A DNA stretch of 64,000 bases, from positions 18,493,538-18,557,537 of the forward strand of contig OX467091.1 of the NCBI GenBank assembly GCA_950106755.1. The letters run 5' to 3'. The translations under genes and the position numbers were made by a program. Of this stretch, positions 6,491 to 53,820 are shown piece by piece. How positions within the stretch are numbered: position 1 is the first letter of the stretch; each line of letters starts with the position of its first letter. This DNA comes from Climacium dendroides (lineage: Eukaryota > Streptophyta > Bryopsida > Hypnales > Climaciaceae). The notes beneath the pieces were generated by a model. The model saw only the letters and a program-made list of their open reading frames with translations, made no database searches and was not told the origin of the DNA.

Positions 6491-6786
6491 CAGAATGTGT
6501 CAGATCAACAAATACTGCAAAAAAGAACACACATATATCATGAGTAAGCGGCCCCATCCGGAACAATGTGTATCGTCACTTCTAGTGTTACGCAGCATGA
6601 GATGTCCATATTGCACAATTGAATAGACGGCCACTGTCTACAACTATTGCAATCCATGCTCTAAGATGTCTACTATGACATCTACTTGGACGTCAACGCT
6701 CCACTACTATGATAAAGAACGTCTGATGTATGTACCACGCAGACATTTGACACTAACAAAGTATCAAAGGCAGGTTAAATCACTTT

Positions 6787-10430: not shown

Positions 10431-12039
10431 TTTGATGGACCTTTGTGGTCACTCACTCATCACATAATTTTCAGTATGTACCTTTGAGCTTAATTCAAAG
10501 CATTTGGAGGCATTCCATTCTCTTTCTTTTTATACTTGGTGCATACTTTTGTGGGTGTAGGTCCATTCGTGCCTTTTTTGGATGCTGAGAACTTACCTTG
10601 ATTAGCAAGTGTCGATCTTGTGAGTGGTTCCGGATGTCATTGGATTGATGGGGAGATCGGCCGGATTGTTCCAAAGGAAGTGTTAGTGTACTACCTGCCT
10701 AGATGCCGATATAGCCTGAGGGGAAGATATTGCCTCATGTATGAGGGTGTTTGAGAGTCTGCGGGCAACTTCCGTGTACGGGAGTTGTAAGACGTGATCC
10801 GAATTCCGAATACCGGAATTCCCCCATAGACAAAGTCAAAGCCCTGGTGTAATGCCCAAAAAAGTGCAAGGATGTCCACCCGGTCAATGGGAGACTCAGT
10901 GTTGGGTTAATGCTAGAATGTCGTTGTAGTCCTTGACCGTCCCTACGTGACCTGGTCCGGTAAGCATTCCGGATTTGTGAGGTGACGGAACAGTAGGATA
11001 TTTCCGGTCCCTAAAGTTAAGTTAGCATTAGTAATAGAGGACAAGTGAGAGAGAGAGAGTCAGTGTTTCTGGACACAGTAAATATCCGGACGGTGGATCT
11101 GGCCACTTGTCATCTAAACCTAGGGATTCCGGAAGGGGCAACTGAACGATTTCTGGATTTTTCTGGAACCCATCCGGCACTAGTAGCCGGACCGGACCTT
11201 TGGTCCAGATTAGAAAGTAGAAGAGAAAGGAAAAGCGTAGATCGAGTTAGCCTAGATCCATAAGCCTCGAGTCCTCGTAGGAACGATTCCAGAGCGGTTT
11301 ACTCTAAGTTGGTCTTTAGTGGGAATTGAGGGCTAACTGGAGGAATATTGATCCGACTAATTACTACACTTGCTATGGTGTAGTTGATTCTACCCTTGCT
11401 CATCGATTTGTCCCCAAAGAAGGCTCGCCACACCTCTACAGAACGATGGACAAAATGAGGGTTAAGACAACTTGCAGGTTTAAAAGAAAACTACCAAGTG
11501 TAACCAGCATGTTATTCTTCAAGCCACAACTTCCCAATGTGATACATCTTCTTCTCCCACTCACGCTCCGCTAAAATGTTCTCATCCTTTAAAATGTCAA
11601 AACAGAGCTCGTGACGAGCTCCTTTTGTTTTGATCTCTTGTTGTTTTCACCTTCATTGCCACCTTTTTCTTCCATAGCTACTTGATGCCTTGAATGTAGT
11701 TTCTGACCGTGTGTAAATGACCGATTCAAAACCCCTCCGATGTAATCAAAGATGTATGACCCCAACTCTCTACCACATAGGAGCAACTGGCACGGTGAGG
11801 CAACAATAGCACATCCGATGTGGTGTTGTTTCCCAAAGAGGAGAGTTGAAGTGAGGAAAAATGCCTTAGCCGTCTGATATAGCCGTCCACTCCCAGACCT
11901 AAAATTGTCCTTCCCAAATATAACCCGGATGACGCGAACCTACCCCAAACCAATGGACCATGTTTGATTGAACGGTCCGTCCGCTGCCGAACCTAGTCAA
12001 GAAGACAAAAGTTGACCTTTGATGAGACGATATGTATTT
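10431..12039. other. CCGG-rich repeat remnants, no gene recognised
   Basis: The segment is dotted with TCCGGA, CCGGA and CCGG motifs (for example 10,920-11,200), like the 59.4-62 kb repeat, and probably derives from the same family. Frames at 11,045-11,263 and 11,326-11,574 show no motif I recognise. The end of the region passes into the truncated Mutator-like element without an identifiable target duplication. Confidence 0.4.
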
Positions 12040-12842
12040 GAATTATATCATGGAGGACACTATGTTGGTAAATGAGGCAACATCAATTCCGTGGTGAGGG
12101 GCTCAGGAAAAAGATGCAAGGTTTCTACAGTTCCTTATAGAAGGAGCAATGGAAGAAGGAGATTTGGTTTTGGACTACACTCCATCTACGGGTTAGTTTT
12201 TTTTGGATCGTCTTTTCAATTGTTTTTTAATGTAATGAATCCTTAAAATAATGAATCCCATATTTTTATATGACAAGTTCATGCATTACAGTATGTTATG
12301 GCATTGGGCACCACATTGTAGTGCTGGAGAAGCAAAAAGACATTTTTGATGTTGTGCTTCTATCCATGAGGAAGCCCTTTTTAGTTGTAGTGGTAGCTGA
12401 AGTTACAAAATTGTCTCCTCTTGTGGTAGCCTCACAAGATCTAGACACCATGAATGTAGTGTCTCGAAAGTTTGTTCGGAAGGATAGATCTCGTAAGTAA
12501 GTTTCAACAACTTTGAATTGTTTTTTTATATCATATTTTTCATATTGTATTAGCCTAATTTAATTTCACTTATCTTCGCAGACATGAGGGAGTGAAGCAT
12601 GGACTTGAATTCAAGAAGAAACAAAGTCTTCTCTTGAGTCTAGAAAAATCTTTCGATCTTCCAGTGTATGCCGAGTAAATAGCATCGGCATTTGCAAAGT
12701 TTGGTTGCTCTAAACCAAAATATAGAAATCCTACATATACTTTGAATGTTTTACATTTTATAGATGGTTCAGCATCCAAGGGTAGAAAAAATTCAAATTC
12801 TTCTAGTATCGCAAATTTTGCAACTGAGTTCACAACAACTTA
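12040..12842 (+). pseudogene. Truncated ParB/methyltransferase-like gene, last three exons
   Basis: Three exon remnants match the 3' end of the gene at 42,031-49,016. The first (about 12,040-12,190) reads EKDARFLQFLIEGAMEEGD then LVLDYTPSTG, aligning with EKDPRFFTILLEATSVPGD and LILDCTASTG; an in-frame TGA replaces the Arg of PWRG. The second (about 12,282-12,498) reads SCITVCYGIGHHIVVLE, aligned with ACITACRGTGHHIVALE. The third (about 12,583-12,842) reads SLLLSLEKSFDLPVYAE, a TAG, then IASAFAKFGCSKPKYR. The introns sit at the same places. Divergence from the full copy is considerable, so the two are old relatives rather than a recent duplication. Both stops are of the CGA-to-TGA or CAG/CAA-to-stop type. 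Confidence 0.8.
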
Positions 12843-13984
12843 GGCTCATAAGATTAACATATCTTGTGAGCAAAACTATTATGTGTTGAGCATTCTATGG
12901 TTTCTAAAGAATTAGAGTACAATTGGTTGCTAAGGCCCAAGGCCTATTCTCCATCCTTAACCACTATAAAATGCCATATCTATAACCTTAAACCCAAAAT
13001 TTTCAATTTGTTTTAGGATTTTTTACTCAAGATCTTGTAATAAAGTAGTATAAGAATTTGTGGAAGAAATTCCTCAAACTTTCACAATGTAGATTGAAAG
13101 ATATTTGCATTTAAAGTAAAGGAAATAAATCTTTTGGCATCTTCTTCAACTACAATATTTAGTTTTGAACCTTCACAATTTATAATTGTTGCTCTACTAA
13201 TTTTAAATCTATAATTTTATATGATAAAAATTAAATTGAGAGACTAGAAAAAAAATTAGGAAATATGCATGTAGTTTTCACTCATTTAAAAATTGTTGAG
13301 TACAAATAAATTGACGATTAAAAAATTATATAATATGTTAACAACTCAAAGATAGATTTGAAATACACAAATCTCAATGGTGGAATTATTTTAGTAAGAA
13401 ATCTTAACCTTTTGAAATTTGTTTTTCACACTGTCAAAATTGAGGTTAGAAACAAATCATACAAGTTATTTTTTTCAAGAAGATTGTTAAAGTGACTGAA
13501 TATACAAGATTGCCCTAAATCCTAAACCAATTCAAATAGAATATTTTTAAGCTTCCCATATACATAAAAAAGTTATCTATACAATTCTTTTAAAAAAAAT
13601 TCCTTATAGTTTGGTTGAAGTTTATTTTAAAAACCATCGTACTTAAAAAAGGATTTTTTCTGACATAACTTTTTCTTTTAGATTTTGACTGAAATAATGA
13701 CAAACACTAAAGCTTTAGGAGACTAAGTCGAAATCTGTTTTGTCCTACCATGGGACAATGGGACAATGGGACTATAGGAGTTTAAATTAAATGCACCTAC
13801 TTATTGCAATAAAAATTTGTTAAAAAAGTATATAAGTGACTTAAATCATTTTAAGAAGTACAAACATTTTTGAAAAACAAAAATAACATGCACCCATGGT
13901 CATACATCCTTCATCCATTTTTTGAAAAATAAAATTCTTGCTCACAAGCTCATGGGCTCACAGGCTTGCATGTTAGCAATCTTG
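12040..13984 (+). mobile_element. Truncated right end of a second large Mutator-like element
   Basis: After the gene remnant the sequence stays related to the 3' flank of the large element. It ends at about 13,930-13,984 with GCTCACAAGCTCATGGGCTC and then GTTAGCAATCTTG. This matches the right end of the 33,880-49,394 element (GCTCACAAGCTCGCAGGCTC, then ATAGCAACCCTG). So both copies share the same gene followed by the same terminal inverted repeat. The left part is missing and no target duplication can be paired. Confidence 0.7.
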
Positions 13985-28318: not shown

Positions 28319-28430
28319 GGTTGATTAGTGAGATAGTAGATTTGTGAATTACGAGAGAGAGAGAGAAGAAACGAGTAGCAATAAGAGACGAATGTGTAAC
28401 CCTACTCCGGACGTCAGTAAGCAAGAGAGA

Positions 28431-31400: not shown

Positions 31401-32531
31401 AGATCATATAAAAGTCTGCAGAATCAACAAGGCTCTCTACGGCCTCAAACAATCTCCCAAGGTATGGTACGAACACATTAGCTCTTGGTTGCAAACACGA
31501 GGACTAACCAGGAGCGAAAACGATCCAAATCTTTTCTACATGAAAAAAGACGGCAAACTACTGCTATTGCTCTTGTACGTAGATGATCTTCTTATTACTG
31601 GCAACGACCAAGAGGAGATTGCCAATTTAAAGGCAGACTTAAAACAAGCATTCGAGATGACAGATCTCGGTGAGGCTAGCAAGTATCTTGGCATGGAGAT
31701 TCACAGGCACAATAACGGTTTGTTTTTTAGCCAACGAGGGTACGTGACAAAGCTACTTGACAGATTTGACTTACAGGGTTGTAACCCCATGAAACTACCG
31801 ATGGATCCAAAGGAATCACTACAAGCTGATATCGAAACCAAAAAGGTTGATCCAATGATGTATAGGTCCTTAGTTGGAAGCTTGCTATATGCATGTATAA
31901 CCCGGCTTGACATTTCCTATGCAGTGGGATGCGTATCAAAATATATACAGGAACCGGAGTTGGCTCATTTTTTAGCAGCTAAGAAAATTCTCCGTTACCT
32001 GAGCGGGACTCTTGACCACGGAATTCTCATGTCATCTAATGATGATGCAACTCTACATACTTTCGTTGACGCTGACTGGGGCAGAGACATCGACACAAGG
32101 AGGTCAATATCGGGAATCATTCACAAGCTTGGAAATTATGCTATCAGCTGGAGTAGCAAGATGCAACCAACAGTATCTTTTTCCGCACAGAGGTAGAATA
32201 TAGGGTTCTTACAGATGCCTCGAAGGACATTATCTATCTCAGGAGACTACTTGAAGAACTTGGATGGAATACAGACGAACCAACCATATTGTTCACTGAC
32301 AACCAATCATGTATCAAATTGGTCAAAAACCCGATATTACACGCGCAGACAAAACATATCGAAATACAACATCATTTCGTACGTGAAGCTGCCAAGGCCG
32401 GTGCAATACAAGTGCACTACATTCCTATTCGGAACCAGCAAGCCGATTTTTTAACAAAACCATTTCCTCAGAAGAATTTTGTACACAATTGCTATCAAGC
32501 CGGAGTCATCTCTCAAGCTTCTGTTAGCTAA
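28431..32531 (+). pseudogene. Copia gag-pol polyprotein, decayed
   Basis: The frame starts at 28,431 (MTENSSLAFREGDKLKGL). GAG (UBN2-like) runs to about 29,090 with KSQILILVGQLQALKMTEG. A zinc knuckle VCYNCNLSDHIARNC lies near 29,220-29,260. Then come the protease-like WYLDSGDSGYIT near 29,407 (catalytic DSG kept), the integrase zinc region and core (IHSDLMEPMP, FTDDYS, QQNGVAERRNQT), reverse transcriptase (ARIVARGFQQKEG, LYGLKQSPKVWY, LLLLYVDDLLITG near 31,570) and RNase H (FVDADWGRDIDTRRSISG). The YVDD active site is intact. At least eight in-frame stops and frame changes near 30,390 and 32,196-32,290 rule out a product. Coding ends ISQASVS at 32,531. Confidence 0.92.
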
Positions 32532-32755
32532 ACAAATCTCTCGTGAACCCAATCACGGGTCCGTGCGTTAATCAACCACAAAGCTTTCCTCGACACCCTA
32601 TGTTTGAAGTCTGGAGTACAAGGGTTCTTCCTAGTCATGCGATTATCCCACCACTCTTCAGGATGCGCAACCAAATGTCTCCAATATTCATCCACCAAAA
32701 TCTCGGTTTCAATCGCAGGGTCACCGCCATCGCCCACACTTGAAACCCTACTCAT
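32528..32755 (-). pseudogene. Captured OSB-type (PDF-motif) gene fragment, antisense in Copia
   Basis: Read on the minus strand, an open 75-codon frame contains DEYWRHLVAHPEEWWDNR, then KNPCTPDFKHRVSRKALWL and DWVHERF. The pattern 'W....P.eWwDNR..K..p..PDFKhk..r.aLWl...p.Wv' is that of the PDF motif of plant organellar single-stranded-DNA-binding (OSB) proteins. Whole OSB proteins are several times longer, with an upstream OB-fold that is missing here. The fragment lies between the end of pol and the 3' LTR, opposite to the element's own genes, which is where plant LTR elements often carry captured host sequence. Its open frame and intact motif suggest a recent capture or some constraint; expression is unknown. 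Confidence 0.75.
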
Positions 32756-33481: not shown

Positions 33482-33879
33482 TGCTTTTCCTTTCGAGTGC
33501 CTCTTGTTGGATTGACGCAAAGCTGCGGCACAACTTGCTTGACGCCACAGCCTGAGATCCGCCTTTCTCGGGCAATGCACACTTCATTGAGCTTCTGACT
33601 TTGGCACCACGTTTTATGAGCTTGGATGTACCAATCAAGTAGCTCTAATTAGCTAACTAGAATCTTAACCTTGAAATGCTCAAAGCAGCCTATGTTTAGT
33701 TTTTTGGTTGTTCAGGGTTTAGATAGTAACATTAATGTAGTTTCTGTACCATGGTTTGAATTGGCCAATTTTAAATGGATGGCTCATTTCTTCACTTACT
33801 CATTTGGACCTTCATTATATTTAATCAGCCTTGGGATGTGGGATAAAAGCATAGAATTGTAGAATCAATCAGTAGTCAA
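33482..33879 (+). repeat. Host repeat, second part (between Copia and Mutator-like insertions)
   Basis: This segment matches the complement of about 58,113-58,410 and 59,110-59,232. Shared strings include AAAGCTGCGGCACA, TTTTTGGTTGTTCAGGGTTT and GGATGTGGGATAAAAGCA. Relative to the inverted copy it lacks about 700 bp between GGCACCA and TTTTATGAGC. Its last nine bases (33,871-33,879, AGTAGTCAA) are the left target duplication of the 15.5-kb element. Confidence 0.8.
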
Positions 33880-33970
33880 CAACGATGCTAGCAGGCGAGC
33901 TTGGAGCGGGGAGCTTGCGAGCCGCGAGCGTGAAGTTTGTGAGCAGTGAGCACCAAAAGTATATTTTTGG
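33880..33970 (+). repeat. Left terminal inverted repeat and GAGC-rich subterminal region
   Basis: The terminal 21 nt pair with 49,374-49,394. Inward lie repeated GAGC words: GGCGAGCTTGGAGC, GGGGAGCTTGCGAGC, CGCGAGCGTG and TGAGCAGTGAGC. The right end has the complementary pattern. Such arrays could be binding sites for the element's transposase; this is inference. Confidence 0.75.
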
Positions 33971-34714
33971 AAATTTTTTTCATCCAAAAACTTACTATTT
34001 ATAGTAAGTTTTGTGACCTATGACCGTGGCTCCTATAACCGTGGTCTACATTTAATTTATAATTTCAAGCTTGGGTTTCTTATTTGCTGACTTCTCGAAC
34101 TTGTAAAATTATGTATATATTTGAAACTCTTATTCATCCTACTACACAAAAGTAGGGGTATAACACTTTTTATAAAATAGACCATCATGAGTTTCGGAGA
34201 ACACTATAGTGTTGTTTGAAGGGGATAAATTGAGCACGGAGAACTAGGGCTTCTAACTATCCCATAATGATTGCTATTTCTAACAAGTGCTAGTATAAGA
34301 GGATTCGTATACAAGGGGTAGCCAAGCTAAAGTTCAGGGTTTGTTGACTACTACAAACCAATGTGGTAGATTTCTAATTTTGACCATAAAGTGATTTACT
34401 TCATGTATTTTAAATTTCTAATTTTTTCCTTCTAACCTGACAGGAACTAAGATTGTAGAGAAGAGGTAGCAAAGCAAAAAATCTATATGAGTTTAGTCTT
34501 CGTATGTGTAGGGTAGCACGAGAGTATAGGATTAGGGTTCTAGCCATACATTGGTATTTCATTTCACACAATTTAGTAATGACACTTCTGAAACATACTC
34601 CCACACTTTGCAAATGGAGGAACATTTTGATTGGTATATGCTTGAAATCATTTCTATTGCCAGATACACTAACGAATACAATATGCATGAATTTATCAAA
34701 AATTGCAATTGTAC

Positions 34715-37700
34715 CTACTCAGGGATAGTGATGAGTCCCGCTTGAAATAGAAGTAGCTTCAACTCATTGAAGCTATAACTAGGTGCATGAATGAACTTGT
34801 CATCATGGATATCCATCTTGCAAAAATACCTATACAAATAATATAGATGTTTACAATTCACATACTGCTGCCTTCCTCCAATTGCCGAGACGGCCATATT
34901 CACAAAATCCGGGCAAGTGCACGAGGGGAACATACCCACCGTAATTCGATATACGTTTTTGGTAGGGTTAGATCCCGTCTCCAATTCCACTATTGCGCCA
35001 AGGCTTGGAAAAGGGAGTAGGGTCACTCCCAAAATTTGTCCTTTAATGTTCCCAGCACTCTCCCACTTGTTCCGTTGTTTCGTACTTGGAGCATTTGCAA
35101 TTCTTCTGATGGTTCGGTTGTTCCTGATTGTTGGATAAGCATTCGGATTCTTGGGCGATGGTTGGTCATACAAAATACTTTCAAAAATCTTGGACATGGT
35201 GAACAATCAACGAGGCGACAAGGTGGGTCGTTCTTGGAGGTGGAAGCCCGCATGCTGCAGCAATAAAGTTTCGTCTCGATTGAGATTTGTCCCAATCAAT
35301 ACGGGCCAAACCTCCGGCACCTCAGGCCAATCAATGACCCATTTCCGCTTTGAGCCTTTCACGCACCTTTCAATGTCGTCCCAACAGAACCAGAAGTCTG
35401 AGACCACCTCGCGCCTACTCCCATATTCTTCTTTCCGCCCACGATAAGTGGGAGCTGGGGTTCCCTTCCTCCCCTTTGCAATTTTTGCGTTACACTTGAT
35501 GTTTGATGTTCGTTGTTGAGCTTGACATCTGGCATTTGACTTGTGGCTAATCCTTGCAATGTGCCACTTCAATGTGTCATAGTCACTTTCAAATGCAACG
35601 GGCACATACTGCAAGGGGCAACCCTCGATTGTATTGCCCTTGCCATCCATCAATTCTTCTGAAGCCTTCGTTGACCTAGTCCGGACACGTGGTTGAGAGA
35701 AATTGATCTTATTTGGTCTATGGGAGTCTCCAGCATCACCAATATGTACGTCCAACTTCCTCTTTGTGCTTCCAAATACTTCCTCTCTTTCCAAATGTGG
35801 TACACGACTTCCCGCACCATGTGCTTCAGGTAATGTGTTCAAGGCCTTGGCAATTTTCTTTGGACAACCACTACGTCTTGCAGCTCTCAGCTTCAGTTCC
35901 CCCTTAGATGGGCCGGACCCACTTGCATGACCTCTGAGGTAGGTGCGATACTTTGTCATTTGCATCCAAGCACGAATACTGTCATCACAAGTGGCGTCAA
36001 ATAAATTGTTCCCTCTATTTCCGGACATTTGAAGCCACTTATTGTGCACTGTTTCAGACAAGTTACACGAAGGCAAGTCTGCCATCTCCTCCAAACTCAA
36101 GCCCTGCAAATGCACCCATTACAATACTTCAATCTCCAATTATGGATTTGTGCCTTTGACCAAAATTTACATATTCTCATGCAAGGTATCCAAAATAGTA
36201 GCATTTGAAGTGAGCACTCCAACTTCCGTTGGATCCGACGGATGTCCAAATGTTCTCTATTGGTACTCCCTTTTGTAGTCCCTGAACGTCACAGGGAAAA
36301 AAATGGAAGGACTACCTTCCACTAGTTCCAATGAATTTTGGAAATTGGAAATGAAAGATACATTCTGTGAGGTCAGCAGAGAGTTTCCTTGGAAGAAAGC
36401 ACTTATATGAGAAGGGTAAAGAAATTGACTTCCAACAAAATAGTAAATGGATAAAAAAAATGGAGTGTTTAGAAGACCAGTGAACTACCCAAGAAATACT
36501 CTGCTGAAAAAAGCTCTATATTCAAAAGAATATTACATTGACAAAAAATTAGGAGTGAACAAATGACTAGCACACTACCAAAAAATACTAGGCTAAGAAC
36601 ATTCGTCCAAAACAAAAAAACTAGACTACCAATAAAAGGAATAAAGGAAATCAAGCCAAAAAAAAACACTATCCTAAAAAGAAGTCTAGACTAACAAAAT
36701 ACTATTCAAATAAGATAAAAAATTAAAAAAAATCTAGGTTGGAACCAATAATTCACTACAAAAACAGTAGTGCACTAAAACAGAATTGTGCCCTAAGAAT
36801 ACGTGGATTTAAAAAAAATACTTGAATAAAAGAAATTCTACACTACCAAAAAAACCCATATACACGTATGTTCATATACATGTAGACGTTTAGGTGTTTG
36901 CATATGTGTATGTCATGAAGCCTCCCCATGCATATAGATAGAGAGATGACACGGTCACTTACCATTGTCATGAAGCCTCCCCACTGCAGGTATCGAAAGT
37001 GCTAGAATGCAAGCCAATGATCTAAATGATGAAGTGCTTCTTCATTCGCGGCTCCAGATGACAACCACCATGACCGGATTGCCAGGTATCGAAGCTCAGC
37101 TTCATCCATAGTCTTCGATTCCTTGTATTGCTTGCATAGCGTAATATGTTGGTGCTGAAAGTTCTATTTGATGTGTTTCTGTATGTGCTTATGAAGGGAA
37201 GTGCTCCAATGTAGCAAACACGTTCTCTCTTGGTTCTCCATGACCTTGTTCGCAGAACCACTCCCATATACTATACGGACCGCATTCCAATTAGCCATCG
37301 CACTATCTGCCATGAATCCTTTGAAGTTCGGGTCAAGCACGCCATGTCGTGCCATAATAGCATTCAAACTCCTCCAAAATTGTACTTGGACCTTGGTATC
37401 TTCGGACTGCATATCGCATACTGCGATGGTCATCACCTTCTTGTACTGAGAGTCGTACACGTGGCAAGCCATGGTGGTCCAATCTTTCACGCGTTTCACG
37501 TGGTCGAACATCATCCACGCGTTTTCAAGGTCCTTTCCTGGTTGCATACGCTTCACCATATCCACTCCGCTTCTTGGTCCTTCTGTTAGTATTTTAAAAA
37601 CATATACTTTCTCTTTGCCCTGTCCTGGGAAGATGCTATCGTGTATGAATTCGAACTTCGACTCTCTCTTCATAGTCATAATGTTGTCAATAACCCCTCC

Positions 37701-39110
37701 TCGATTATTTAAGCGGAAGGAGGAAATGACGTTGCGTATACTAGGGCTGCTTAGATATTGGAATCGATCCATCACCTCATCCACTTCCTCTCCCTTCAAC
37801 ATTCTCTTCTCTCCCTCTCTATGGTGAAATAAGTAGTTCGACAGGAAATCTTTGCTAACGGACAATGCTATAGCAGAGTTAGTGGCTGTCGGTGTTTTCG
37901 CCACCTGCTCCGCTAGGAGTTCACTAATTTCATTTTTAGAATCTCTATACATGTCTTTTCCTACTGGATGAGTACGGGCTCCAAAGTGAATAGACGCCCT
38001 TGTCATATTTGGATTGTCGCTATAACAATAGTAGATCCTAGCATCGCATGTGTGAAGGCAAGTGGGTGTCACTTTGCAGACTTTACACACTAGGGTACAG
38101 TCTTTGGGTGGACCATCCCCTACTGCAAACGGGAAGACTGTGGATCCACTCCACTCTGTCTCATTCCTTTTTCCAGCCCTCTTCAAGTACTCGCACTCAT
38201 GGTTCTTACAAGCAAGGTGACCGGCACAGAAAGACTTATGGAACTTTAGGTTGTCGACGTTGTGGATGTTTGTAGTCACGAGTTTGCACCATGGATGTCC
38301 ATCATAACGCTTGTCCATTCCCTCCAAGTTCTTCGCTGCGGATGATGAAGAGGACGAGCGACACGAAGGTAACTCAAATAGCACATCTCCATTGTAGGAA
38401 GGGGGAAGGTACTGCACCCGGTGGTGCTTTATAACATCAAAGTTTGTTGTGGACAGTTCACTTCTAGAGCGACGAATACTGGACAATCTCTTCAAGCAAT
38501 CCATAATACTCACTTGGGTACCAAGATTTGCTGTCAATGGAGGGCATGGAAGCACAGGGGACTGTAAACTATTGGATGGGGTGGTTGATGTGACTTTTGT
38601 ATCTGACATACTGTGGACCGCAAGCGTGGCGTTTTGAAGTGCAACTTGCGGGGACTCTCCCTCAGATTCACTAGACAACTCTACAATGGTATCCATTTTC
38701 TCCCTCTTCACCTTCGTAAGAATCGTATTGTTCGGGAGTATAGGAAAGCAGTCACTTGGTAGACTAGCTAGAAGTCTTGGAGACATGTAAGGCATGTCCA
38801 TTGTAGAATTGTCTGATTGCCGACTACCTAGCTCAGTGGCCGCCCCAAGAAGACTAAAAAGAAGCCCAAAAGCTCTATAGTTTCCTGCCCGCAGATACCA
38901 ACAGTGGCCTTCTTCTTCTACACTCTTCTCCATTGGAATGGACTGCTCTAATTCCCCTGATTCCAACTTTCTCTCTTCTTCGACATAGATTGAAGACTCT
39001 AGGAACTTGAATCTAACATGCAAAAGGTGATTGAGTACTCTAGCATGTCCTTCGTGATTCACTGGAAACACCAAAGGTATTTCATGACCGTCTACTCTAA
39101 TACAAGTCAT
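34715..39110 (-). pseudogene. Mutator-like DDE/SWIM transposase, full frame with three stops
   Basis: Two exons, 39,110-36,963 and 36,103-34,715, joined by GTAAGT...TTTGCAG, give 1,178 codons in one frame. The start is the ATG at 39,110 (MTCIRVDGHEIPLVFPVN). A Cys/His-rich zinc-binding block (HPWCKLV, CAGHLACKNHECEYL, CKVCKVTPTCLHTC) precedes the catalytic domain, where WMMFDHVKRVKDW and KGFMADSAMANWNAVR supply the first two catalytic Asp candidates; the third acid is probably in AANEEALHHLDHW. The C-terminus has a SWIM finger (CTCPDF ... VNCKH near 34,920-34,850). Only three codons are broken: TAG at 37,166-37,164, TAG at 37,004-37,002 and TGA at 35,209-35,207, all explainable by single transitions from CAG, TGG or CGA. 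There is no frameshift. This gene would encode the mobilising enzyme of the 15.5-kb element. Confidence 0.85.
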
Positions 39111-39882
39111 AATGTAAGTAGGATGACTGCAGGAATTTGAAATGAGAGAACTGGCTTTTAAGAAGGGTGTTGAGGATTTTATACTTTGTTGAGGAGTTCC
39201 TTGCAATCATTGTGATCATCACTTTTCACGCAGACAGCGAGGTCCAGGTTAGTACAAATTTCTATTGCCACTCAATTAAGTTACTTTCCGTATTGCCGCC
39301 AGTAAAGGTTAGAATTTTGAAATTAAGAGCAATTTAATAACCTTAGCCATCAAGCAATGATACCGAATTTTTGCAATTCATTTCCGCCAATAGTTAGTAC
39401 AAGATCATCTTGGCTAAATTTTGATAGAGATTTGAGAGTAATGGCGAGGAGCCCATCTAATAAAATGGAGTAATGATGAAAGCCTCATCCACTTGTTGGG
39501 AATTCCTTGGAAGTGACAAAATAGAAATTAATTTATTTCATGTAGGTTTATATTGGTTTGGAATGTGTAGTGGGTACGTATGTAGGCTAAGGGTAGATGT
39601 GAAATTTCTACTAGGAACTTTGAACATGTCCAGGAATTGAATGTACTAGTTCTCCTTTTCTTTACGCGTCTCTTCCTCATATGATTGCAATGATGTATTA
39701 GGTATCCAAACTCATTGCCAATACATGCACGCCTTGCAGGAGCTCTGTCATTGTTAGGAGTGCCCAACTCCGCCGTCATTTTCAAAAATAAATTGCTGGA
39801 GGCGGAGGAAATATTGTGCCGACATTGGAGGATTTGGAGCGTGGCAAACTCAACTGACAGCATAACAGTTTTGTCAAAACGA
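39111..39882. other. Intergenic segment of the large element, no gene seen
   Basis: Upstream of the transposase start there is no recognised coding sequence; the minus frame 39,528-39,863 lacks motifs. The segment should hold the transposase promoter. Confidence 0.4.
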
Positions 39883-40109
39883 CACTAGAAGAAACCAAAA
39901 TTTTCGATGTCTAAGGGAACGGATTTTAGGTGACGTTGAAGAAAACAACCTATGTTTTTCTGTCAACAATTATCTCCATTAATGTTCCATTGGACATCAT
40001 TATTGACATAAAAAATACAGGTTGTTTTTTTCAACGTCACCTAAAATTCGTTCCCTTTGACGTCGGCTGTTTTTTTAAATGTCACCTAAAACAAGGTTTT
40101 CTTATAGTG
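39883..40109. mobile_element. CACTA-derived fold-back MITE, CGA duplication
   Basis: The ends are CACTAGAAGAAACC (left) and the complement of CACTATAAGAAAACC (right), with CGA duplicated at 39,880-39,882 and 40,110-40,112. The arms share GGATTTTAGGTGACGT and AAAACAACCT-type sequence with the 5,215-5,430 element and the 2,852 CACTA terminus, so all three belong to one family. It is inserted in the Mutator-like element and is therefore younger than it. Confidence 0.82.
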
Positions 40110-40518
40110 CGAGACGGACTTCAAAGTCATTAGGACTGCCAGTACTTCAAGAGCATAGTATGCCGATTTCAAAGCAAAATAAATCTATGGCGCTTTCATA
40201 GAGCCACCAATACTCACGTGTCAGTTGATCTTAGGAGATTAATTACAGCTTGGCCAGTTAGGAAAATGCAGTAATTTTGAGCATGCGAACCTCATTCAAG
40301 AGCAACTATAAGTTAGACCTTGGACCTGCTCAAAGCCTTTTCATTTTGCAACTCCAATTGTGGTAGCAGCGTTGCATCTTAGTAATCACATAGTTTTTGC
40401 TGTCTCATGCTTGTAGGCAATCCAAACTCTGCCATCTTAGCTCCGTCACATTGTACAAAAAGGAAGAGACGTAGAGCTTTCTTCTTTTCGACAGCAAAGG
40501 CTTTGAGGGTATCCAGGA

Positions 40519-40764
40519 TGACGAGAGCGAAGAAAACAGTTTCAAGGACAAGGCAGGGTGTAGAGAGAGAGGTACCAAGAGCCATCCAGTTCCAAGAGGG
40601 TGATGCGCCTCCAGTAGATGAAGTGGGTCTACCGTTGCACACTGTGCATGACGGGATCAGAGAGAGTGCAGGACTTAGCAAATTTAGAGGAGACGCCACG
40701 GTGAATGTGAGTTTAGATTTGAATTCCTCTCATTTATTGCAGTCATGGCGTCAACCTAGATTAT
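40519..40764 (+). CDS. Small basic hypothetical ORF (possible alternative first exon)
   Basis: An 81-codon frame from the ATG at 40,519 begins MTRAKKTVSRTRQG, resembling in composition the short basic leader at 42,031 (MARSTRSRSR). I recognise no domain. It may be a stand-alone peptide, or, if spliced from near DATV (a GTGAAT follows at about 40,701), an alternative first exon of the ParB/methyltransferase-like gene. It may also be chance. Confidence 0.25.
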
Positions 40765-42030
40765 AGTGACAGAGGACCTTAGCTTGGTTATGATACCTAA
40801 TTGTAGTGGATTGTGCACTACATTGCTTAGAGACTGACCATTATCATACCGGAGACTTACCCTAAATGCACACCTTTGCATGGCACAGACGTGCTTTCAG
40901 TAGGCCATTTTAAGACTATGTCAAAGTGGAGCTGTACACTTTGAGTTCCAGACATTGAGTTGTAGACCTTCAGTTTTAGACTTTTAGTGAGTCATGGACA
41001 AGCATTGAGAGAACTTGCATTTAGTTTCATTTCTGAACACGCAAAGTTTGCATTCCTGTTGTTGTTGTACAATTTTTAGTACTGACAAACAAGATCAATT
41101 GAGAGTGATAAGTACTCTCATTTGGAGTAAAGGCCTTGAAGGCTCTGGTGCTACTCTAAAGAGACAAGTAGAACATCCCTTATTTTAGAAGGACTTTTCT
41201 GTAATTTGGAAAGGGTGTTTAAGGTCAAGGCCAGACATTTGTATTAACAAGAACAATTTGTCTACGGTGTTCACATGAAGCTTGCAAACATTCATAGGCC
41301 TTGAAGGCTTGTAGACATTCTAATGTCACTAAGAAAGAAAATGAATTTTTTTTTAAAGTTCTATAATGCCAAAGCAATTTAATTACCAGCAGGGTTGCTT
41401 CCGAGTTTTCAAAATGAAAGAGTGCTCAGAAGTTAGTCGTCCTCTGAACTAGCAATCCAAAAGCCAATCTTGGGAGTCCAAAGATGGAAACTGTGAGTCT
41501 GAAACTGGAAATTGGGGAAGATGAATAAGAGCTTCAAATCGATCGAACGCCCTGAGCCACAATTCGGTGTCTCCCGCACCGCTCGCTCTAGGAAGTTGGT
41601 TCCTGAATTTCCAAGCGTCCAAAATGCCTCCAAAAAGGTACTTCCGTTCCAAGTTTAGGAGTCCTGGATGCCGCCCAAGTGAGTCGATTTCGAAATAGAC
41701 TCGCGGATATCTTTCTGCGCCGATGAGCTTCCAGGGATTCCTCCTGTGGACGTAGGTGGGAAACATTCAAACTCTCTCATCGCTCACGATATGCGCTTGA
41801 CGGTGGAGGACCTTACATTGAGAAGCTGGTGCTCGATGATATCACATGCAATCAAACGGCCGCGTGTGCTGGAATGAGAACTTGTGGGATTTTCATTTTG
41901 TGAATCGATATTCAGGCCGAACTACTAAACTATCATACCTTGGAACATGGAAGTCGTTCACCATTAGTGCAGCAGTGTGTCCGAAGAATCTAACAGCTTG
42001 GCACTCCTTGATCTGCAGGACGAAGCTGCA

Positions 42031-45000
42031 ATGGCCCGTAGTACTCGCAGTCGTTCCAGAACGGCAGATGCCGAGCCGGACCCAGCGCTTCAAGTCAGTG
42101 TCTAGATTTTGGTATTCTTATGTGAGTCCTATGCGCTAAGGAGTACAAGCTTCAACAGCGCCACTCGCGCCACGTGCGGCGCGCGACAGTCGCGTCACGC
42201 GGGTGATGCTTGTTTTCTTGAGTGCCCGATTTAGTTAGATTGAAATTGCTCTATCGAGTGCTTTGGCTTCCACTGCTGAGTTTCCAATCTGGGCTAAAGG
42301 AAGGGGCGGCAACATCAGAAGTCTGAGACTGAAATCCTCAATCACGTGGTTTGGTTGCCAACCACCACATTAGTATTGACTGTAGCAGTTCACTCCTTTA
42401 GTGGTTCACTGGAGCAATACAAGTTAGAATCGATCGGTAACTGCCATATTTTGGGCTTATGGAAGCTCACACGGGGGGGTACACAACGGCAGATCCAACT
42501 AAAACTAATTCGGAAGTTGATTATGAGGGAGGTGTCACGTAGGCATGAAGAAAAAATGATCAGCCCGGGGGTGCTGCTTGAATACCGTCGGATCTCATTT
42601 TGAGAGAAATCTGATTTTGAGAGAGGACTAGGTGTGAAAAATTCCATCAGGTTGGGGTGTCACCGTGAACACCGTTGGACCCGACGGTGTTCATGGTAAC
42701 ACCCCAACCTGATGGAATTTTTCACATGCCCAAATCTCCCGCGTGGACTAGCGTGGAATGTGGCTGTGGGCTGGCCTTTATCTCCTAGGAATTTAATGTC
42801 GCCTTGGACTGGTCATATCTCATTAGAATGAGGCTGCAAGAATTAGAGATTTGGGCATGTGAAAAATTCCATCAGGTTGGGATGTCACCATGAACACCGT
42901 CAGATCCGATGGTGTTTACGGTGACACCCTAGTCTGATGGAATTTTTCACATACCCAAATCTCTTGCGTGGACTAGCGTGGGTGTCATTGGAATGTGGTT
43001 GTGGACTGTCCTTTACCTCCTAGAAATTTAATGTCGCTTTGGACTGGACATATCTCATTAGAATGTGGCTGCATGAAGTAGAGATTTGGGCATGTGAAAA
43101 AATCCATCAGGCTGGGGTGTCACCGTGAACACTATCGGATCCGACGGTGTTCACGGTGACACTCCAGTCTGATGGAATTTTTCACATGCCCAAGTTGTTT
43201 TTACTCGATTTGTGCTCCAAAACTACTGTATGGGTCCATCTTCAATCCTGACGTGTGCATTTGCTTTCTTCAGACATGTGATCGTCATGGGGAGTTGTTC
43301 AATGGCACACAATCAATCTCTGATGTGGTATTAGTATCTGTCTTTTTTTGTTTATATTTAAATAATGAAATAGAGGGAATTCGGATTTGGGATTTAGGCT
43401 TAGTGCTCTCAATGTCGTTAGGAACTCGTCCCCAAGCTCTGAATGTCTTAGGGAACTCGTTCTCAAGTTCCCAATTTTTTTTGCTTACATTATTCGTTAG
43501 GACTCGTCCTTCAGTTCTCTATGTCTTTGGAAAATCTTACTAATGTACTCATAGCCTTTGGCTTGGATTTTGAATTGCTATTGCATTGTGTTCTTTGCAA
43601 ATGCATCTTTTGTTGTTCTAAAAGAGTTATAACATATTGTTAGAGAGAATAACCTTGCTAAGACATATGCATCTTGATTTTACACTTCAATGTAGGTATA
43701 GAACTCATGTAGGGGAATGAATCCTACATGTACAGGAAGTTCGGTTACGGAGACCTTTGGTATTTATAGTACATGTTGAGATTTGTAAATTGAAGTTTCC
43801 TTGCTTACAGTTGCATTCAATGTCTCTTAGACATTGTCTTCAACCTCAACTCTAATTTCATTGTATTCATTCCTCCAGGCTGGCCAACGCAAAGGCAAGC
43901 ACCCAAAGGTGACATCTAAAGAGAAGCAGGCCCCAATTGACCAGACCTTGACGTCGTTGCACATAGGAGGGCCTTCTCAACCACAGAAGGGGCCTCAAGC
44001 ACGCCAAGTGCTTTCAAGTGACTCTAGTGATGATGAAGAGAACTTAGTGAATTTTGCAGACATCATGGACGCTGCAGAGCGTGCTGTAAATGACTTCGAG
44101 GGAGATAGGCTTAGTTGGAACCAAGGGCCTGGGCCATGGTTCTCCCCTAAGATCTCGGAGACGGAGTATTCCTCCGCCATTGAGCTCTCAAATGCTAGCT
44201 CTAGCCCCTCGTTTGAGGAAGTGAGTGAGAATATTGGGATTGGTAGAGTTTACACATATGAAGTCATCATCCTCAGCTCAGATGAGGATGAGGATGATGA
44301 CGTGGACATCATCCAATACGGTTTCATGACCCCAATTACATACCTTGTGCGGTTTTAGACATGCAAGCCATGTGCAGGCTGTTTTTCTTTCATATATTTA
44401 CCACTCTTCCATTCTATAAGTGTAATTTTTTTTATTGAAGTAAAGCATTTTCAACTACATCTCAACATAAATTCTTTGCATGGACTTGGCCTCTTTTTTA
44501 ATTTGCGAGTGCAATCTTCTCTGACTAGAATTGTACATGCAGATGGATGTTTCACCCACTGGAGTAACTCAAGAAGAGACCATCTTGGAGACTCCGGGAA
44601 CAGATGAAACAACACAGCCACATATTGGGGACGAAGAAGAAGAGGATGAAGAAGAGGACGAAGAAGGAGGAGGACAAGATCCCATGCAAATAGATGACCT
44701 AGAAGACGAAGATCAAGGACTCATGGAGGATGAATTGCGGCGCATACAAAAAGGCGACTCAGTAGATATCCTCTCCACTCTGCGAATGAAGCCCAAAGAA
44801 CTCTTCCGGCTACACATCCCGCTTTGCAGACTTGTCGTTATGCCCATGGTGAGGCTCACACTCGCTTGTGACATTACGAAGTTGGAGCAAGAATTCGCAG
44901 GTGGATACCGTGATGGTGCGACAGTGTTCTATGTCTCTACCACTAATGAGGAAGGAGAAAGCCAAGAGTTCGCAGAGGACGAGATGAACAAGTGGGATCC

Positions 45001-48000
45001 AATCTGGAGAGAGAAAAATGAAGTGTTCACACGCTACCTCGACTCCAGACCTGAACTTCAGTTCCTCAAGAACTTGAAGTTCTTCATTTGCGACGGCAAC
45101 CATCGCCGCATTGCATGGATGAACCTCATTGACAGGTGCTACACATTGCTCCCAAAATGGCACTGTGTCGTAGACTGCATTGTATTGGAAACCAAAGGGA
45201 AGACCGAGCTTGTCATGTAAGTGATGCATGACATCAACAAGTGAGTTCTTCCTTCTTGAGCTGCTTTTCCGGTCTTTGGTTTTTATGTGCCCTAGTTGTG
45301 AAATCATGGAGGCTTATTGGATTTCCTAAAATAGTGTTCTACTTCCAGGTCAGTGGAGGATTCACACGTGAAAACAAACTTGGTACACACTCTGTACCAG
45401 GTGCAGAAGTATGGTCTTCTTCCAATCAACCGATTTGCTGATCTCCTCAAGCCCAGGGAGAAGAAAAGGTGTTTGCAATTCAAGGTTTCAAGGAAATGGT
45501 ATAGCATACCTGTGGAGGTCTTCACATCGTTCATTTTCAGGGTAAGACACTATGTGTTATACAAATTTGGAATCCTTCAGTTTGCTGCAGCCTGCTCCCA
45601 AAATTCTTCACATGCCTAACTTCTAATTCAATGTTATCGTCTGAATGTGCAGCAAGAGGTTTCCCAAGCTACGGATGCTACAGTGAGAAAGTATATCGAT
45701 GCTACACCAGAAGAGGAGAGGACCCCTTAAGAAGTCGCTCTTGCCATGAGGGCGGGAGCAAAGGAGAAAACCAAAACTCTGATGGTGAAAATGGGGAAGT
45801 TGTTGGCAGTGGCTCAACCATCTAACGGGCCAGGCTTCTTATAGGAGGTCAGTCTAATTTTGAAACCTTGCACAACTACGAATTTACTTCTTCTATTTTC
45901 AAACACCAAGAGTTATTGAATGTGTTGCTGTCATAGGTGGAGAGGCACTGGAGCACTAATGAAGTGCCTAAAATTACATTGGAGAAGTCGCAAATGGTGG
46001 CCACGTACAACATGGCACTTGCACACAAGATCAAGATCTTAAAGTGTTGGAACTCCTCTGCTCCATCTCGCGAAGCAAGAAAGTTCCCACCAAAGCCCGT
46101 CTCCGAAAATCTCCTGCCCCATTTCCTTGCCAAATGCGTCTGGTATGCTGGGGTAAGGGAATTGTTTCCTGTAGTCAAGTAACTATACCAAGCGATACTT
46201 GGTTTTCAAATTGTAACTCACAAGTTCAGAATGGGACCATGAACGTCTTCAATTGTACATTTTTAACATGTATTGTACTCTGCAGATCGAAGATGCAGCA
46301 GTGGAGTACTTCGACTCGGTGGTGAAGCAGGACAACATCACTGTAAACTACAGCATTCCAACACAACCACAGTACTTGGTAGAGTACATAGAAGGGTGGA
46401 GGCGCACAATTTGGGAGCACGGGTTTCAGACATATTTCAAAGGGCACAATTACTTCAAAAAAAGGGACTCGTTCATGGCTCACGAAGCATCAGCCGCTGC
46501 TATGCGCAGAGTTTTGTACCGGTGAGTTCCACTATCTCAATACTGGAATATGTCTAATAACTTGGTGGACAGCAAGTTATTGTAAAAATCACTATACTAT
46601 TTGAAGTCCATTATAATGAGGTTTCAAATGTTCACATCAACTCTAATTCCTTATTTTAGAACCTTTCGGTATACAATTGTATGATAATTCTCTTCTGCAA
46701 CATCTCCATTAGGCCCTTATACTGGAAATGCATTCATTTTTCACAAGTTCGTTGGTCTTACCATCCGGAATTGCTCACAGATGTATGTTGTAGAGATTCC
46801 ATGATCATCATTTACATTCTCCTGAATGCAAAATCATGCTTGTGTTGTAGATATTTCAAATTCGAGCTCGAAGGAAAAGGAGCCATCGATCGCTCAGACC
46901 TTCCCCCCTTCCTATCATCATATCTAGATCGCACATCCAATTCTTGTATGTTCACCGCACACCAGCTCCGCACCTACACCACAGCTCATCTCAGCGGTGG
47001 AGGATGGTACCTGGATTGTCTCCTCAAGTTCACTCCTCCTTCCGAGGTTGAATTCAGGAGATCTTTGGACGGGAAAGGGGTCCTGGACTTAGAGATCAAT
47101 GAGTTTACAAGCCTGGATGACAAAGCGAGAAAGAAGGCCATTGCAAGGAGGGATTTTCTGGACCGGAAGAAAGAGGCGCGGGTCCAAATCCACCTTGAAG
47201 CGAAGGAGATGAAGGCGTCCGAGCTCGCTGACAAAAAGGTGGCAAAAGAAAAGGAAGAGAAGGGTAAAGGCAAGGAAAAGGGAAAGAAGAAGGAGGAAGC
47301 GGGAGGCGAGGTGGTACCATCTTCCACCGCAAATGAAGATTCACAAGCGCAAAGTGCAGTACAGAAGAAGGCTACTCTCCTACAACTCACCGAGGAAGTT
47401 ATCACTCGTATGACACAAGCCATGGTCATTACAAAAGGTGATGTTTCCAAGACGGAGGATTTGATCCTCAACATCTCCATCGAAGTCCTGGCAAAAGACA
47501 TGGTCGAGGAGAAGCCCACGTGGTACAACGAGGTGCTGCATTTCTTGAAAAAGGTATGCATATGCATCTTTGTACTCAAAAGCGCATTTTGTGCTTTCAT
47601 GTCTCATGAATGTTTTCTGTGCTTATTTTTAACTTCACCATGTTCTACATGTTTGCAGATGTCGGCCAGAAAGACTCGCATGTTCGAGGGAGTGCCAAAT
47701 GCTCGACCGGGGGTGGATGTCATATTCATTGACTGTCTGGAGAACTTACCCGTGCCTGGGCTCTCTACACCGGCCTATGAGGTGCCAATGTGGAATGCAG
47801 ATGCTGATGATGAGGCTCTCCAGTTGGCATATAGCTTCGCCATAGAGCATCTACAAGATGATGGGTGCATCATTCTATTTCACTCCTACAGCATCAAATC
47901 CAAAGAGAACATTGTTGGGGTATGTGAGGCGTATGACTTGCTGATGAAGAAGGACTGGATGGGGATGAACCGCATGCACATCACCTCGGCTATAGACAAC

Positions 48001-49016
48001 ACAAAGACGGTAATTTTCATAGAATTTTGTTGACTTTTATGAACAAGTTGCAATACACTTCATTCAATGCATTCTTACGTACATTTGCTATGGACGTTGC
48101 AGACAGAGAAGTTTGGAATCACCCTCCTCGTGAAGGACCTCGGCTCCAAAGAAAAATCCAAATTTTCCTTTAAAAAGACTAACACCACAATGAAGGCTGG
48201 TGTGGACTTGGCTATCGATGACATGCTGATCAATTACACCCATGCAGATGACATGGCTATGAATGAAAACAAACCTTGGCGAGGCGGACGCGAAAAAGAT
48301 CCAAGGTTCTTCACTATCCTCCTGGAGGCAACAAGCGTTCCAGGAGACTTGATTCTGGATTGTACCGCATCTACAGGTAATGATTCCATTCAGAAGTTTA
48401 CTCCTCCAAATGTGTTCTTCCAATTCTTTCATGGAACTAAGTCATTTTGATTTCACTGCCTCCAGGTGCATGTATTACGGCTTGTCGTGGCACCGGCCAC
48501 CACATTGTGGCTTTGGAAGGGAAAAAAGACATTTATGATGCCATTCTGAAACCCATGAGGAAGTCACCAACACTCGTAGTGGTGACACCAACTATGCCAC
48601 CGATAGTTCACATTTCACAAGATCCGGAGGATATGCCAGTGGTGCCTCACAAATTCGTTCGCAAGGGAAAATCCAGTAAGTAAGTTGGCATTTTCTTTCA
48701 TCTTTGCTTGGATGAAGACTTTCATGTTCTACAATATTGACAACATGTCATCTTCCGTTGCAGAGATGGGAGATTGATGGCAAGGAATGCCACCCTACTC
48801 CAACTAAGTCTTCTCATCAGTCCGGAGAAGTCTTTTGAGCTCCCAATCTATGCCGAGCAAATGGCGAGTGCCTTCGCGGAGTTTGGTTGCTCCAAACCCA
48901 AACGTCGTAAAGACACTTACGCTCTAAATGTCTTACAGTGTATAGATGTTTCAACATCTGAAGGTAGAGAGTCCTCGGAGTCATCTCCGAGTTCTGATTC
49001 TTTGATAGAGTCCTAA
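42031..49016 (+). CDS. ParB-like / beta-class DNA-methyltransferase-fold protein, element cargo
   Basis: Proposed exons, all GT-AG: 42,031-42,093, 43,879-44,346, 44,543-45,216, 45,349-45,541, 45,653-45,847, 45,937-46,152, 46,286-46,521, 46,851-47,553, 47,659-48,009, 48,103-48,376, 48,466-48,679 and 48,764-49,016. Phases agree throughout (about 1,280 codons). The first two exons are less certain. Order: basic leader; acidic tracts with VIILSSDEDEDDD, a SUMO-interaction-like motif; ParB-like domain ending FFICDGNHRRIAW (near 45,080-45,120); Lys/Glu-rich linker (47,100-47,330); then DVIFIDCLENLP at the motif IV position and GDLILDCTASTG with GTGHHIVALE at motif I, the permuted beta-class order. 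DPPY is missing and FxGxG is altered, so methylation activity is doubtful. Two stops (TAA 45,728, TAG 45,842) both lie in exon 5, 195 bp and phase 0, which could be skipped. The role is unknown; bacterial and phage proteins join ParB and methylase domains. Confidence 0.75.
42633..43190. repeat. Three tandem hairpins, unit about 234 bp
   Basis: Three palindromes (about 42,633-42,726, 42,845-42,963 and 43,081-43,190) share arms with TGAAAAATTCCATCAGG, GGGGTGTCACCGTGAACACC and a TCGGATCCGACGG-type centre. The spacers between them are also repeated (GCGTGGACTAGCGTGG, AATTTAATGTCGC, CATATCTCATTAGAATG). The array lies in the proposed first intron of the ParB/methyltransferase-like gene. Arms are nearly complementary, with differences between units that are partly compensated on the other arm. 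Confidence 0.8.
43194..43878. other. Rest of proposed intron 1, no separate gene seen
   Basis: Contains degenerate short repeats of the form ACTCGTCC(C/T)(C/T)AAG(C/T)TCT near 43,420-43,530 (three copies). It ends in CATTCCTCCAG, a good 3' splice site for the exon at 43,879. Confidence 0.4.
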
Positions 49017-49299
49017 ACAACTTAGATTCATGAGATTGACAAATCTCTTTAATGGGTCAAACTATTATGTGCTGATTTTCATTGTAGTTGGATTTGTGTG
49101 TTTTATAGATACTTCTTCCATGTGTTCAATTTTCTTGCATGTTTTCTACTTGCTTCATTTTCTTCAATTGATAGTATTTTGTCTTTGCCTATAAGAAAGA
49201 TTGAAAAATAAAAACAAGACACTAAACCGACTCTCAAAAACAGATCTCACATTAACCACTCTATACACGGCACAATACCCACGGTCATAGGTCAACTCT

Positions 49300-49394
49300 A
49301 CAAGATTCTAAATTTTTTCAATTCATTTTTTTCATGCTCACAAGCTCGCAGGCTCATAGGCTCAGGCTCATAGGCTCGCCAAATAGCAACCCTG
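49300..49394 (-). repeat. Right terminal inverted repeat and GAGC-rich subterminal region
   Basis: Contains GCTCACAAGCTCGCAGGCTC and further GGCTC words, then ends ATAGCAACCCTG before the AGTAGTCAA duplication. The complement mirrors the left end. The same sequence type closes the truncated element at 13,984. Confidence 0.78.
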
Positions 49395-53538: not shown

Positions 53539-53544
53539 AAAAGA

Positions 53545-53820
53545 CTAGTCCTTTTTTGTGTCACACTTCAAGTGATAGAGTTGTCATTGGCCACAACTTT
53601 TGGAGGTTCAAGAAAATGAAGTTGAAATTTTTTTGGAAGGTGGAGAACTCCATAGCCACGAGAGGCCATATTTTCTAAGAATTGAAAAAAATCAAATTCT
53701 AATTAATTTCTAATTTAGCTAATTTGTCACACTTTGTAGTTTAGGGGTTTTTAGTACTGGGGAGTATTCAATTTTGATCATTTTGAGCTGAAATTTTTAT
53801 GGGCTCTTCCTATAATGTAT
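53545..53820 (+). repeat. Dispersed repeat, partner of 18,471-18,765
   Basis: Shares GTGTCACACTTCAAGTGATA-type sequence, CTAATTTGTCACACTTTG and GAGCTGAAATTTTTATGGGC with the 18.5-kb copy in the same order. It lies directly upstream of the transposase relic. Confidence 0.5.

What the first reader, a model, noticed from the sequence alone, without database searches (positions are those of the whole stretch)
33880..49394. A 15.5-kb Mutator-like transposon with a proven-looking footprint and unusual cargo
Seen: perfect 9-bp duplication AGTAGTCAA on both sides, inverted termini (15 of 21 matches), a SWIM-type DDE transposase frame on one strand, and an unrelated large spliced gene on the other. 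The uninterrupted host repeat with a single AGTAGTCAA is present at 58,113-58,121. Known: Mutator-superfamily elements make 8-11-bp duplications and usually span a few kb; some autonomous ones carry extra genes (for example VANC of VANDAL elements, an anti-silencing factor). Inferred: the ParB/methyltransferase-like gene is a functional partner of the element, perhaps acting on chromatin or DNA of the element itself.
Basis: partly seen in the sequence, partly recalled or inferred. Interest (0 to 1): 0.95.

Follow-up and report, generated by a model that had tools for sequence, protein, structure and literature searches.

The report
Giant plant transposon carrying ParB-methylase-like gene
This is a decayed copy of a large, multi-copy plant jumping gene that travels with a second gene resembling bacterial DNA-binding and DNA-methylating proteins; better-preserved sister copies in the same genome and signs of natural selection suggest that the second gene is a working part of the element rather than a passenger.

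Summary
Confirmed and extended. The 15,515-bp insert at 33,880-49,394 has an exact 9-bp target duplication and an empty site in the window. Of 10 further copies fetched from the same genome, 8 have both termini and both genes, at different targets with 9-10-bp duplications; in 2 the second gene is truncated and no right end was found. The transposase has a predicted IS256/Mutator-type fold. The partner gene (10 exons, 1,110 codons) has ParB/sulfiredoxin-like and N6/N4-methylase-like domains. This copy is dead: three stops per gene. Two copies of a second subfamily, 99.3% alike, show no in-frame stop in either gene. An older copy shows selection on the partner (dN/dS 0.18) as on the transposase (0.21). 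GAGC arrays at both ends persist between subfamilies. The methylase motif IV is non-canonical, so the domain may bind rather than methylate. ParB-methylase genes are known from algal transposons; my searches found none in a Mutator-type plant element. The mechanism is inferred, not shown.

The parts
33871..33879 (+). left target-site duplication AGTAGTCAA
49395..49403 (+). right target-site duplication AGTAGTCAA
33880..33951 (+). left terminus with 7 GAGC motifs (element positions 18,25,32,40,47,62,69)
   Evidence: the same positions plus 54 in subfamily D
49336..49394 (-). right terminus with 6 GAGC motifs (positions 18,26,32,40,48,56 counted from the end)
   Evidence: the first five in subfamily D
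34014..34029 (+). subterminal motif TGACCTATGACCGTGG
49279..49294 (-). same subterminal motif, inverted
36963..39110 (-). transposase exon 1 (zinc-type part and RNase H-type part); in-frame TAG at 37,166-37,164 and 37,004-37,002 in this copy
34715..36103 (-). transposase exon 2 (SWIM-like CxC..CxH near the end, by eye); in-frame TGA at 35,209-35,207
42031..42093 (+). exon 1 of a small upstream reading frame (167 codons together with its exon 2 in other copies)
   Evidence: model only, no transcript
43879..44346 (+). exon 2 of the small upstream frame; 9 of 9 other copies with this region stop at codon 168, this copy lacks that stop; the right edge given is that of my first model
44543..45240 (+). 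ParB-methylase-like gene, exon 1 of 10 (acidic leader; ParB/Srx-like domain modelled on 44,729-45,217; TAA at 45,218)
45349..45541 (+). exon 2 of 10
45653..45847 (+). exon 3 of 10; TAA at 45,728 and TAG at 45,842 in this copy
45937..46152 (+). exon 4 of 10
46286..46521 (+). exon 5 of 10
46851..47553 (+). exon 6 of 10
47659..48009 (+). exon 7 of 10: methylase-like motif IV region (IDCLEN here; DCPE, DIPE or DCPK in nine sister copies)
48103..48376 (+). exon 8 of 10: start of the methylase-like motif I (LDCTASTG)
48466..48679 (+). exon 9 of 10: rest of the motif I region
48764..49016 (+). exon 10 of 10, ends in TAA
57637..58412 (-). uninterrupted host repeat (empty site), single AGTAGTCAA at 58,113-58,121
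11990..13984 (+). relict of a related element: last exons of the ParB-methylase-like gene (11,990-12,804) and right terminus (13,940-13,984); left part not found

Best explanation
The insert is a dead copy of a giant, multi-copy Mutator-type (IS256-like) DNA transposon family of a plant genome. Its autonomous form has at least two genes on opposite strands: a ~1,180-aa transposase and a ~1,110-1,130-aa protein with an N-terminal ParB/sulfiredoxin-like domain and a C-terminal N6/N4-methylase-like domain. SHOWN: the family, its ends and target duplications, both genes kept and selected, copies without in-frame stops in a second subfamily, and decay of copies mostly in CG and CHG contexts. INFERRED: the partner protein recognises the GAGC arrays at the two ends (perhaps also the TATGACCGTGG motif) through its ParB part and acts on the element's own DNA or chromatin, most likely to keep the ends accessible against host silencing, as VANC does in VANDAL elements; the methylase-like part would read or occupy DNA rather than certainly methylate it. 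I put about 0.97 on the element and the partnership and about 0.4 on the anti-silencing role; the figure below is for the whole.
Confidence: 0.62

Rival explanations
1. The partner is an active self-marking methyltransferase that puts N6-methyladenine or N4-methylcytosine on the element's own DNA, as suggested for the Ectocarpus Sola1-1 protein.
For: Same domain pair, similar size and opposite-strand layout as described in PMC12477816; relationship to N6_N4 methylases.
Against: Motif IV is D-C/I-P-E in 8 of the 9 sister copies that keep it, D-C-P-K in c9, and D-C-Q-E in d1, not (D/N/S)PP(Y/F/W) (the canonical form is recalled, and one search shows DPPY in the aligned phage enzyme).
Confidence: 0.2
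2. The partner helps transposition itself (pairing the ends, choosing the target, or making a long element a workable substrate) rather than countering silencing.
For: The GAGC arrays sit at the very ends; a ParB-type domain could bridge or spread on DNA (recalled); the full-length elements measured are 15-19 kb long.
Against: No direct evidence; many Mutator-type transposases are thought to act without such a partner (recalled).
Confidence: 0.25
3. Passenger: a host gene captured once and carried along without function (Pack-MULE-like).
For: Mutator elements are known to capture genes (recalled).
Against: Present, whole or truncated, in all 10 further copies, in two copies of a second subfamily and a relict; dN/dS 0.18 and 0.19.
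Confidence: 0.03
4. Chance or assembly artefact: the 9-bp duplication and ends are coincidental.
For: AGTAGTCAA occurs 4 times in the window against 0.57 expected.
Against: Empty site and eight further duplications at the same ends.
Confidence: 0.01

Closest known systems
Sola1-1_Ec32 of Ectocarpus (PMC12477816) and the green and red algal ParB-methylase transposons it cites
   Same: giant DNA transposon; accessory gene on the strand opposite to the transposase; ParB-like plus N4/N6 methylase domains; 1,104 aa there, 1,110 and 1,127 aa here
   Different: transposase there is Sola, here IS256/Mutator-type with 9-10-bp duplications; host here is a plant; motif IV here is non-canonical; homology between the accessory proteins was not tested
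VANDAL elements with VANC anti-silencing proteins (Arabidopsis; PMC10398659, passages)
   Same: Mutator-type elements with degenerate terminal inverted repeats, an accessory gene, and short motifs repeated in non-coding parts
   Different: the accessory protein here is ParB-methylase-like; anti-silencing not shown; VANC itself was not compared
TET/JBP-bearing DNA transposons of fungi (PMC12730594, abstract)
   Same: several transposon lineages took up a DNA-modification enzyme, thought to help them escape silencing
   Different: dioxygenase there; methylase-like fold with ParB here
Mariner elements of giant viruses that encode a methyltransferase (PMC3627910, passages)
   Same: DNA transposons carrying a methyltransferase gene
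   Different: other superfamily and host, an endonuclease beside it, the word ParB does not occur in that paper's text
Pack-MULEs (recalled)
   Same: Mutator-type ends around non-transposase sequence
   Different: here the transposase is present and the second gene is a kept, selected component

Membership tests
Mutator superfamily (MULE / IS256-like) | 8-11-bp target duplication | tested here: met
   9 bp in the window copy and c5; 10 bp in c3, c4, c6, c8, c9, c10; 9 of 10 in c7; d1 9 bp, d2 10 bp
Mutator superfamily (MULE / IS256-like) | terminal inverted repeats | tested here: met
   15 of 21 in the window copy, 16 of 21 in d1 and d2; short and degenerate
Mutator superfamily (MULE / IS256-like) | RNase H-type transposase of IS256/Mutator kind | tested here: met
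   [not shown]
Mutator superfamily (MULE / IS256-like) | match to the Pfam MULE or SWIM models | tested here: inconclusive
   no MULE match for the window's 680-aa frame and 10 relatives, P0001 among them; SWIM 11.5 bits, E 0.22, cut-off 19.6
Mutator superfamily (MULE / IS256-like) | WRKY-GCM1-type zinc domain before the catalytic part | tested here: inconclusive
   [not shown]
ParB-methylase accessory genes of transposons | ParB-like domain | tested here: met
   [not shown]
ParB-methylase accessory genes of transposons | N4/N6 methylase domain | tested here: met
   copy d1: PF01555 E 2.5e-5 (24.8 bits, curated cut-off 26.7) and five PHROG methyltransferase families at E 2.2e-5 or less; the window copy only reaches E 0.0026
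ParB-methylase accessory genes of transposons | canonical catalytic motif IV (DPPY type) | tested here: not met
   DCPE, DIPE, DCPK, DCQE; so it is not claimed to be an active methyltransferase
ParB-methylase accessory genes of transposons | sequence homology to the algal proteins | not testable with these tools
   those sequences were not held
VANDAL / VANC | VANC-type accessory protein | tested here: inconclusive
   no Pfam family matched the first 433 aa of the d1 partner; the middle part was not scanned in d1 and VANC was not fetched
Pack-MULE | captured gene piece without transposase | tested here: not met
   transposase sequence present in 10 of 10 further copies

The most novel reading that the evidence does not exclude
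A plant transposon runs a bacterial-plasmid-like system: a ParB-type nucleotide-switch domain loads at GAGC arrays at both ends and spreads or bridges along the element, while a methylase fold that has lost its catalytic motif serves as a DNA reader, together shielding the element from CG/CHG silencing or pairing its ends.
Probability: 0.2. Interest if true: 0.92.

Novelty: new variant of a known kind. Interest (0 to 1): 0.74.

Why it matters
ParB-methylase genes in algal transposons have been described, but their role is only proposed (PMC12477816). Here the pair sits in a Mutator-type element of a plant, in many copies, some without in-frame stops, with selection measured and with candidate binding sites at both ends. 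That makes a standing question (do eukaryotic transposons write or shield their own epigenetic marks?) testable, and suggests that in this lineage the methylase fold may have become a reader rather than a writer. It also parallels VANC and TET/JBP transposons: unrelated elements arm themselves with chromatin- or DNA-acting partners.

Tried and rejected
Search with the whole spliced plus-strand gene: none of the 7,989 scored candidates reached E 0.001; the cause was probably low-complexity words and the length filter for a gene of many exons. The single ParB exon then gave 101 relatives at E up to 1 among 124 candidates.

Alternative genetic code: the in-frame TAG and TAA codons made me look at a TAR=Q reading. 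Rejected: at the six sites the commonest codons of the other copies are CAA, GAA, CAG, CAG, TGG and CGA.

My first splice model (12 exons) joined two upstream exons to the partner gene; 9 of 9 other copies with that region stop at codon 168, so those exons are now given as a separate small frame, unproven.

Relatives in viral contigs and prokaryote genome contigs: none. PDB sequence searches with the two domains: no relevant match at E up to 10. ParB part against phages: two weak rows, not relevant. Two contig lengths (583,271 and 185,737) appear both among transposase relatives (P0047, P0008) and partner relatives (P0061, P0074): suggestive of shared contigs only.

One search compared the 40 left ends with 60 of the 150 rows, so some of its 7 misses may be due to that; one of them (c3) carries the exon. 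The ten copies are rows 2-10 and 14 of the 40. The neutral simulation covered 7 of the 11 copies.

Literature: the listings showed no land-plant or Mutator-type ParB-methylase transposon. The two works that PMC12477816 cites for algae (Iyer 2011, Petroll 2025) I know only from its text and reference list.
Full report
Observation. The insert at 33,880-49,394 is bounded by AGTAGTCAA on both sides. Its flanks align to an uninterrupted repeat at 58,412-57,637 on the minus strand; the joined flanks match that empty site with 4 mismatches in 92 aligned columns, none in the 9 bp. The terminal 21-mers match at 15 of 21 positions. A 16-nt subterminal motif is shared in inverted orientation, and GAGC recurs, mostly 6-8 bp apart, in the last ~70 bp of each end.

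Genes. The minus-strand transposase has two exons (39,110-36,963 and 36,103-34,715; 1,178 codons); relative P0001 (1,278 aa) covers both. The plus-strand gene was first modelled as 12 exons with GT-AG introns. In 9 of 9 other copies with the region, a stop ends the frame of the first two exons at codon 168, so I now take the partner gene to be 10 exons, 44,543-49,016, 1,110 codons. In this copy each gene has three in-frame stops. The commonest codons of the other copies there are CAA, GAA and CAG (partner) and CAG, TGG and CGA (transposase): five C:G-to-T:A changes and one G-to-T. Two of the three transposase stops recur in one other copy each and the third (codon 649) in two.

Family. A left-end query gave 40 matches among 40 scored of 316 candidates in the 412.6-Mb genome. 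I fetched 10 of the 39 other copies (rows 2-10 and 14). Transposase and partner sequence is present in 10 of 10. Eight of 10 have both ends within 20 kb, are 14.9-18.8 kb long and lie at different targets: c3, c4, c6, c8, c9, c10 with perfect 10-bp duplications, c5 perfect 9 bp, c7 9 of 10. In c1 and c2 the partner gene is truncated and no right end was found within 26 and 25 kb. The long aligned stretches of copies other than c5 are about 95-97% like the window copy; the middle (element positions about 5.5-9 kb) varies more, and c5 is 75-92% alike. The ParB exon has 150 matches among 150 scored of 982 candidates: by my hand count 87 at 87% or more, one at 72%, 62 at 60-66%. Thirty-three of the 40 left ends have such an exon within 18 kb downstream on the same strand (with 60 of the 150 rows).

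Second subfamily. Two loci of the 64% group are elements of 17,032 and 17,037 bp, 99.3% alike, with duplications ACCTTGAAA and GTAAGACAAT (an 11-bp reading shifted by one base is also possible in d2). Both carry the transposase, exons 69% and 79% identical to the window's, without a stop in the aligned parts, and the partner gene in 10 exons of the same layout, 1,127 codons without a stop. A relict in the window (11,990-13,984) keeps the last partner exons (48-68% identity) and a right terminus of the same kind; its left part was not found.

Selection. Majority-rule frames over the 11 copies are open for both genes. Copy c5 differs from the majority with dN/dS 0.18 in the partner and 0.21 in the transposase; simulations that keep its mutation spectrum give neutral medians of 0.67 (0.51-0.92) and 0.73 (0.58-0.88). 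The relict gives 0.19 over 191 codons, with synonymous sites near saturation. The window copy itself is within the neutral range (partner 0.48 against 0.39-1.01, transposase 0.41 against 0.37-0.97; three stops in each against 3.2 and 3.1 expected). Of the five other young copies simulated, the partner lies below the range in c3, c8 and c9, at its edge in c4 and within it in c10; the transposase lies below it in c3, c4, c8 and c10 and within it in c9. So selection acted in the lineage, while the differences of this copy fit decay since insertion.

Decay. In copies other than c5, C-to-T change per site is about 6% in CG, 7-8% in CHG and under 2% in CHH, the pattern expected of plant CG and CHG methylation (recalled). 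I infer that settled copies were methylated.

Mechanism. GAGC positions 18, 25, 32, 40, 47, 62, 69 on the left and 18, 26, 32, 40, 48 on the right are the same in the window copy and in d1 and d2 although spacer bases differ; several sister copies have lost single motifs, and in c5 and c6 the right array is shorter or shifted. I infer a binding-site array for the partner or for the transposase. By analogy with VANC proteins, which bind short repeated motifs in non-coding parts of VANDAL elements and induce loss of silencing marks (PMC10398659, passages), the partner most likely protects or opens the element's ends. Active methylation, as suggested for Ectocarpus, and direct help in transposition remain open rivals.

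Known and new. The Ectocarpus paper (PMC12477816; [quoted passage not shown] The kind is therefore known. New here are the Mutator-type partner, a plant host, copies without in-frame stops, measured selection, conserved terminal arrays and a non-canonical motif IV. The listings showed no such report for land plants or Mutator-type elements in the held library. No tool named the host; TIR and NB-ARC frames in the window and the decay pattern point to a plant.

Noticed in passing
51,877-52,677 (and 52,795-53,583): Frames on the minus strand, just outside the element, that look like another decayed SWIM-type transposase (SWIM E 0.016, 15.2 bits, below the cut-off, for the first; the second by eye).
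   Followed up: partly
8,208-9,641 and 5,428-6,499: Pieces of a CACTA-type element on the minus strand: Transposase_21 E 9e-47 for the first, the second by eye.
   Followed up: partly
28,325-32,604: Decayed Copia-type retrotransposon with several TAG stops (RVT_2 E 4.5e-43 for 31,318-32,193).
   Followed up: no
24,438-26,528: Minus-strand NB-ARC (E 5e-32) and TIR (E 2.7e-26) reading frames of a disease-resistance-type gene.
   Followed up: no
39,886-40,109: About 224 bp, largely an inverted repeat, missing at this place in 8 of the 10 other copies (c1-c4, c7-c10), unclear in c5 and c6: a nested MITE-like insert, perhaps private to the window copy; its CACTA-like ends were read by eye.
   Followed up: partly
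42,633-43,193: Long internally repeated palindrome within the element; related sequence lies at the matching place in most of the sister copies aligned.
   Followed up: partly
minus strand, near 38,690-38,650 (transposase codons about 140-151): Acidic stretch IVELSSESEGES looks like a SUMO-interaction motif (recalled); a very loose pattern of it occurs in 48 of 52 relatives, no control made; the small upstream frame has VIILSSDSDEDDD in sister copies.
   Followed up: partly
[not shown]
   Followed up: no
G000:C2:50,847,780 (+) and 50,867,913 (-): Two left ends facing each other about 20 kb apart, perhaps nested or composite elements.
   Followed up: no
about 40,519-40,705: Open frame MTRAKKTVSRTRQG... 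upstream of the partner gene, maybe a further exon.
   Followed up: no
G000, ParB-exon matches at 64%: Eight listed places of the second subfamily share the same score (229.7 bits) and a 263-aa open frame, which suggests very recent spread; two of them were fetched.
   Followed up: partly
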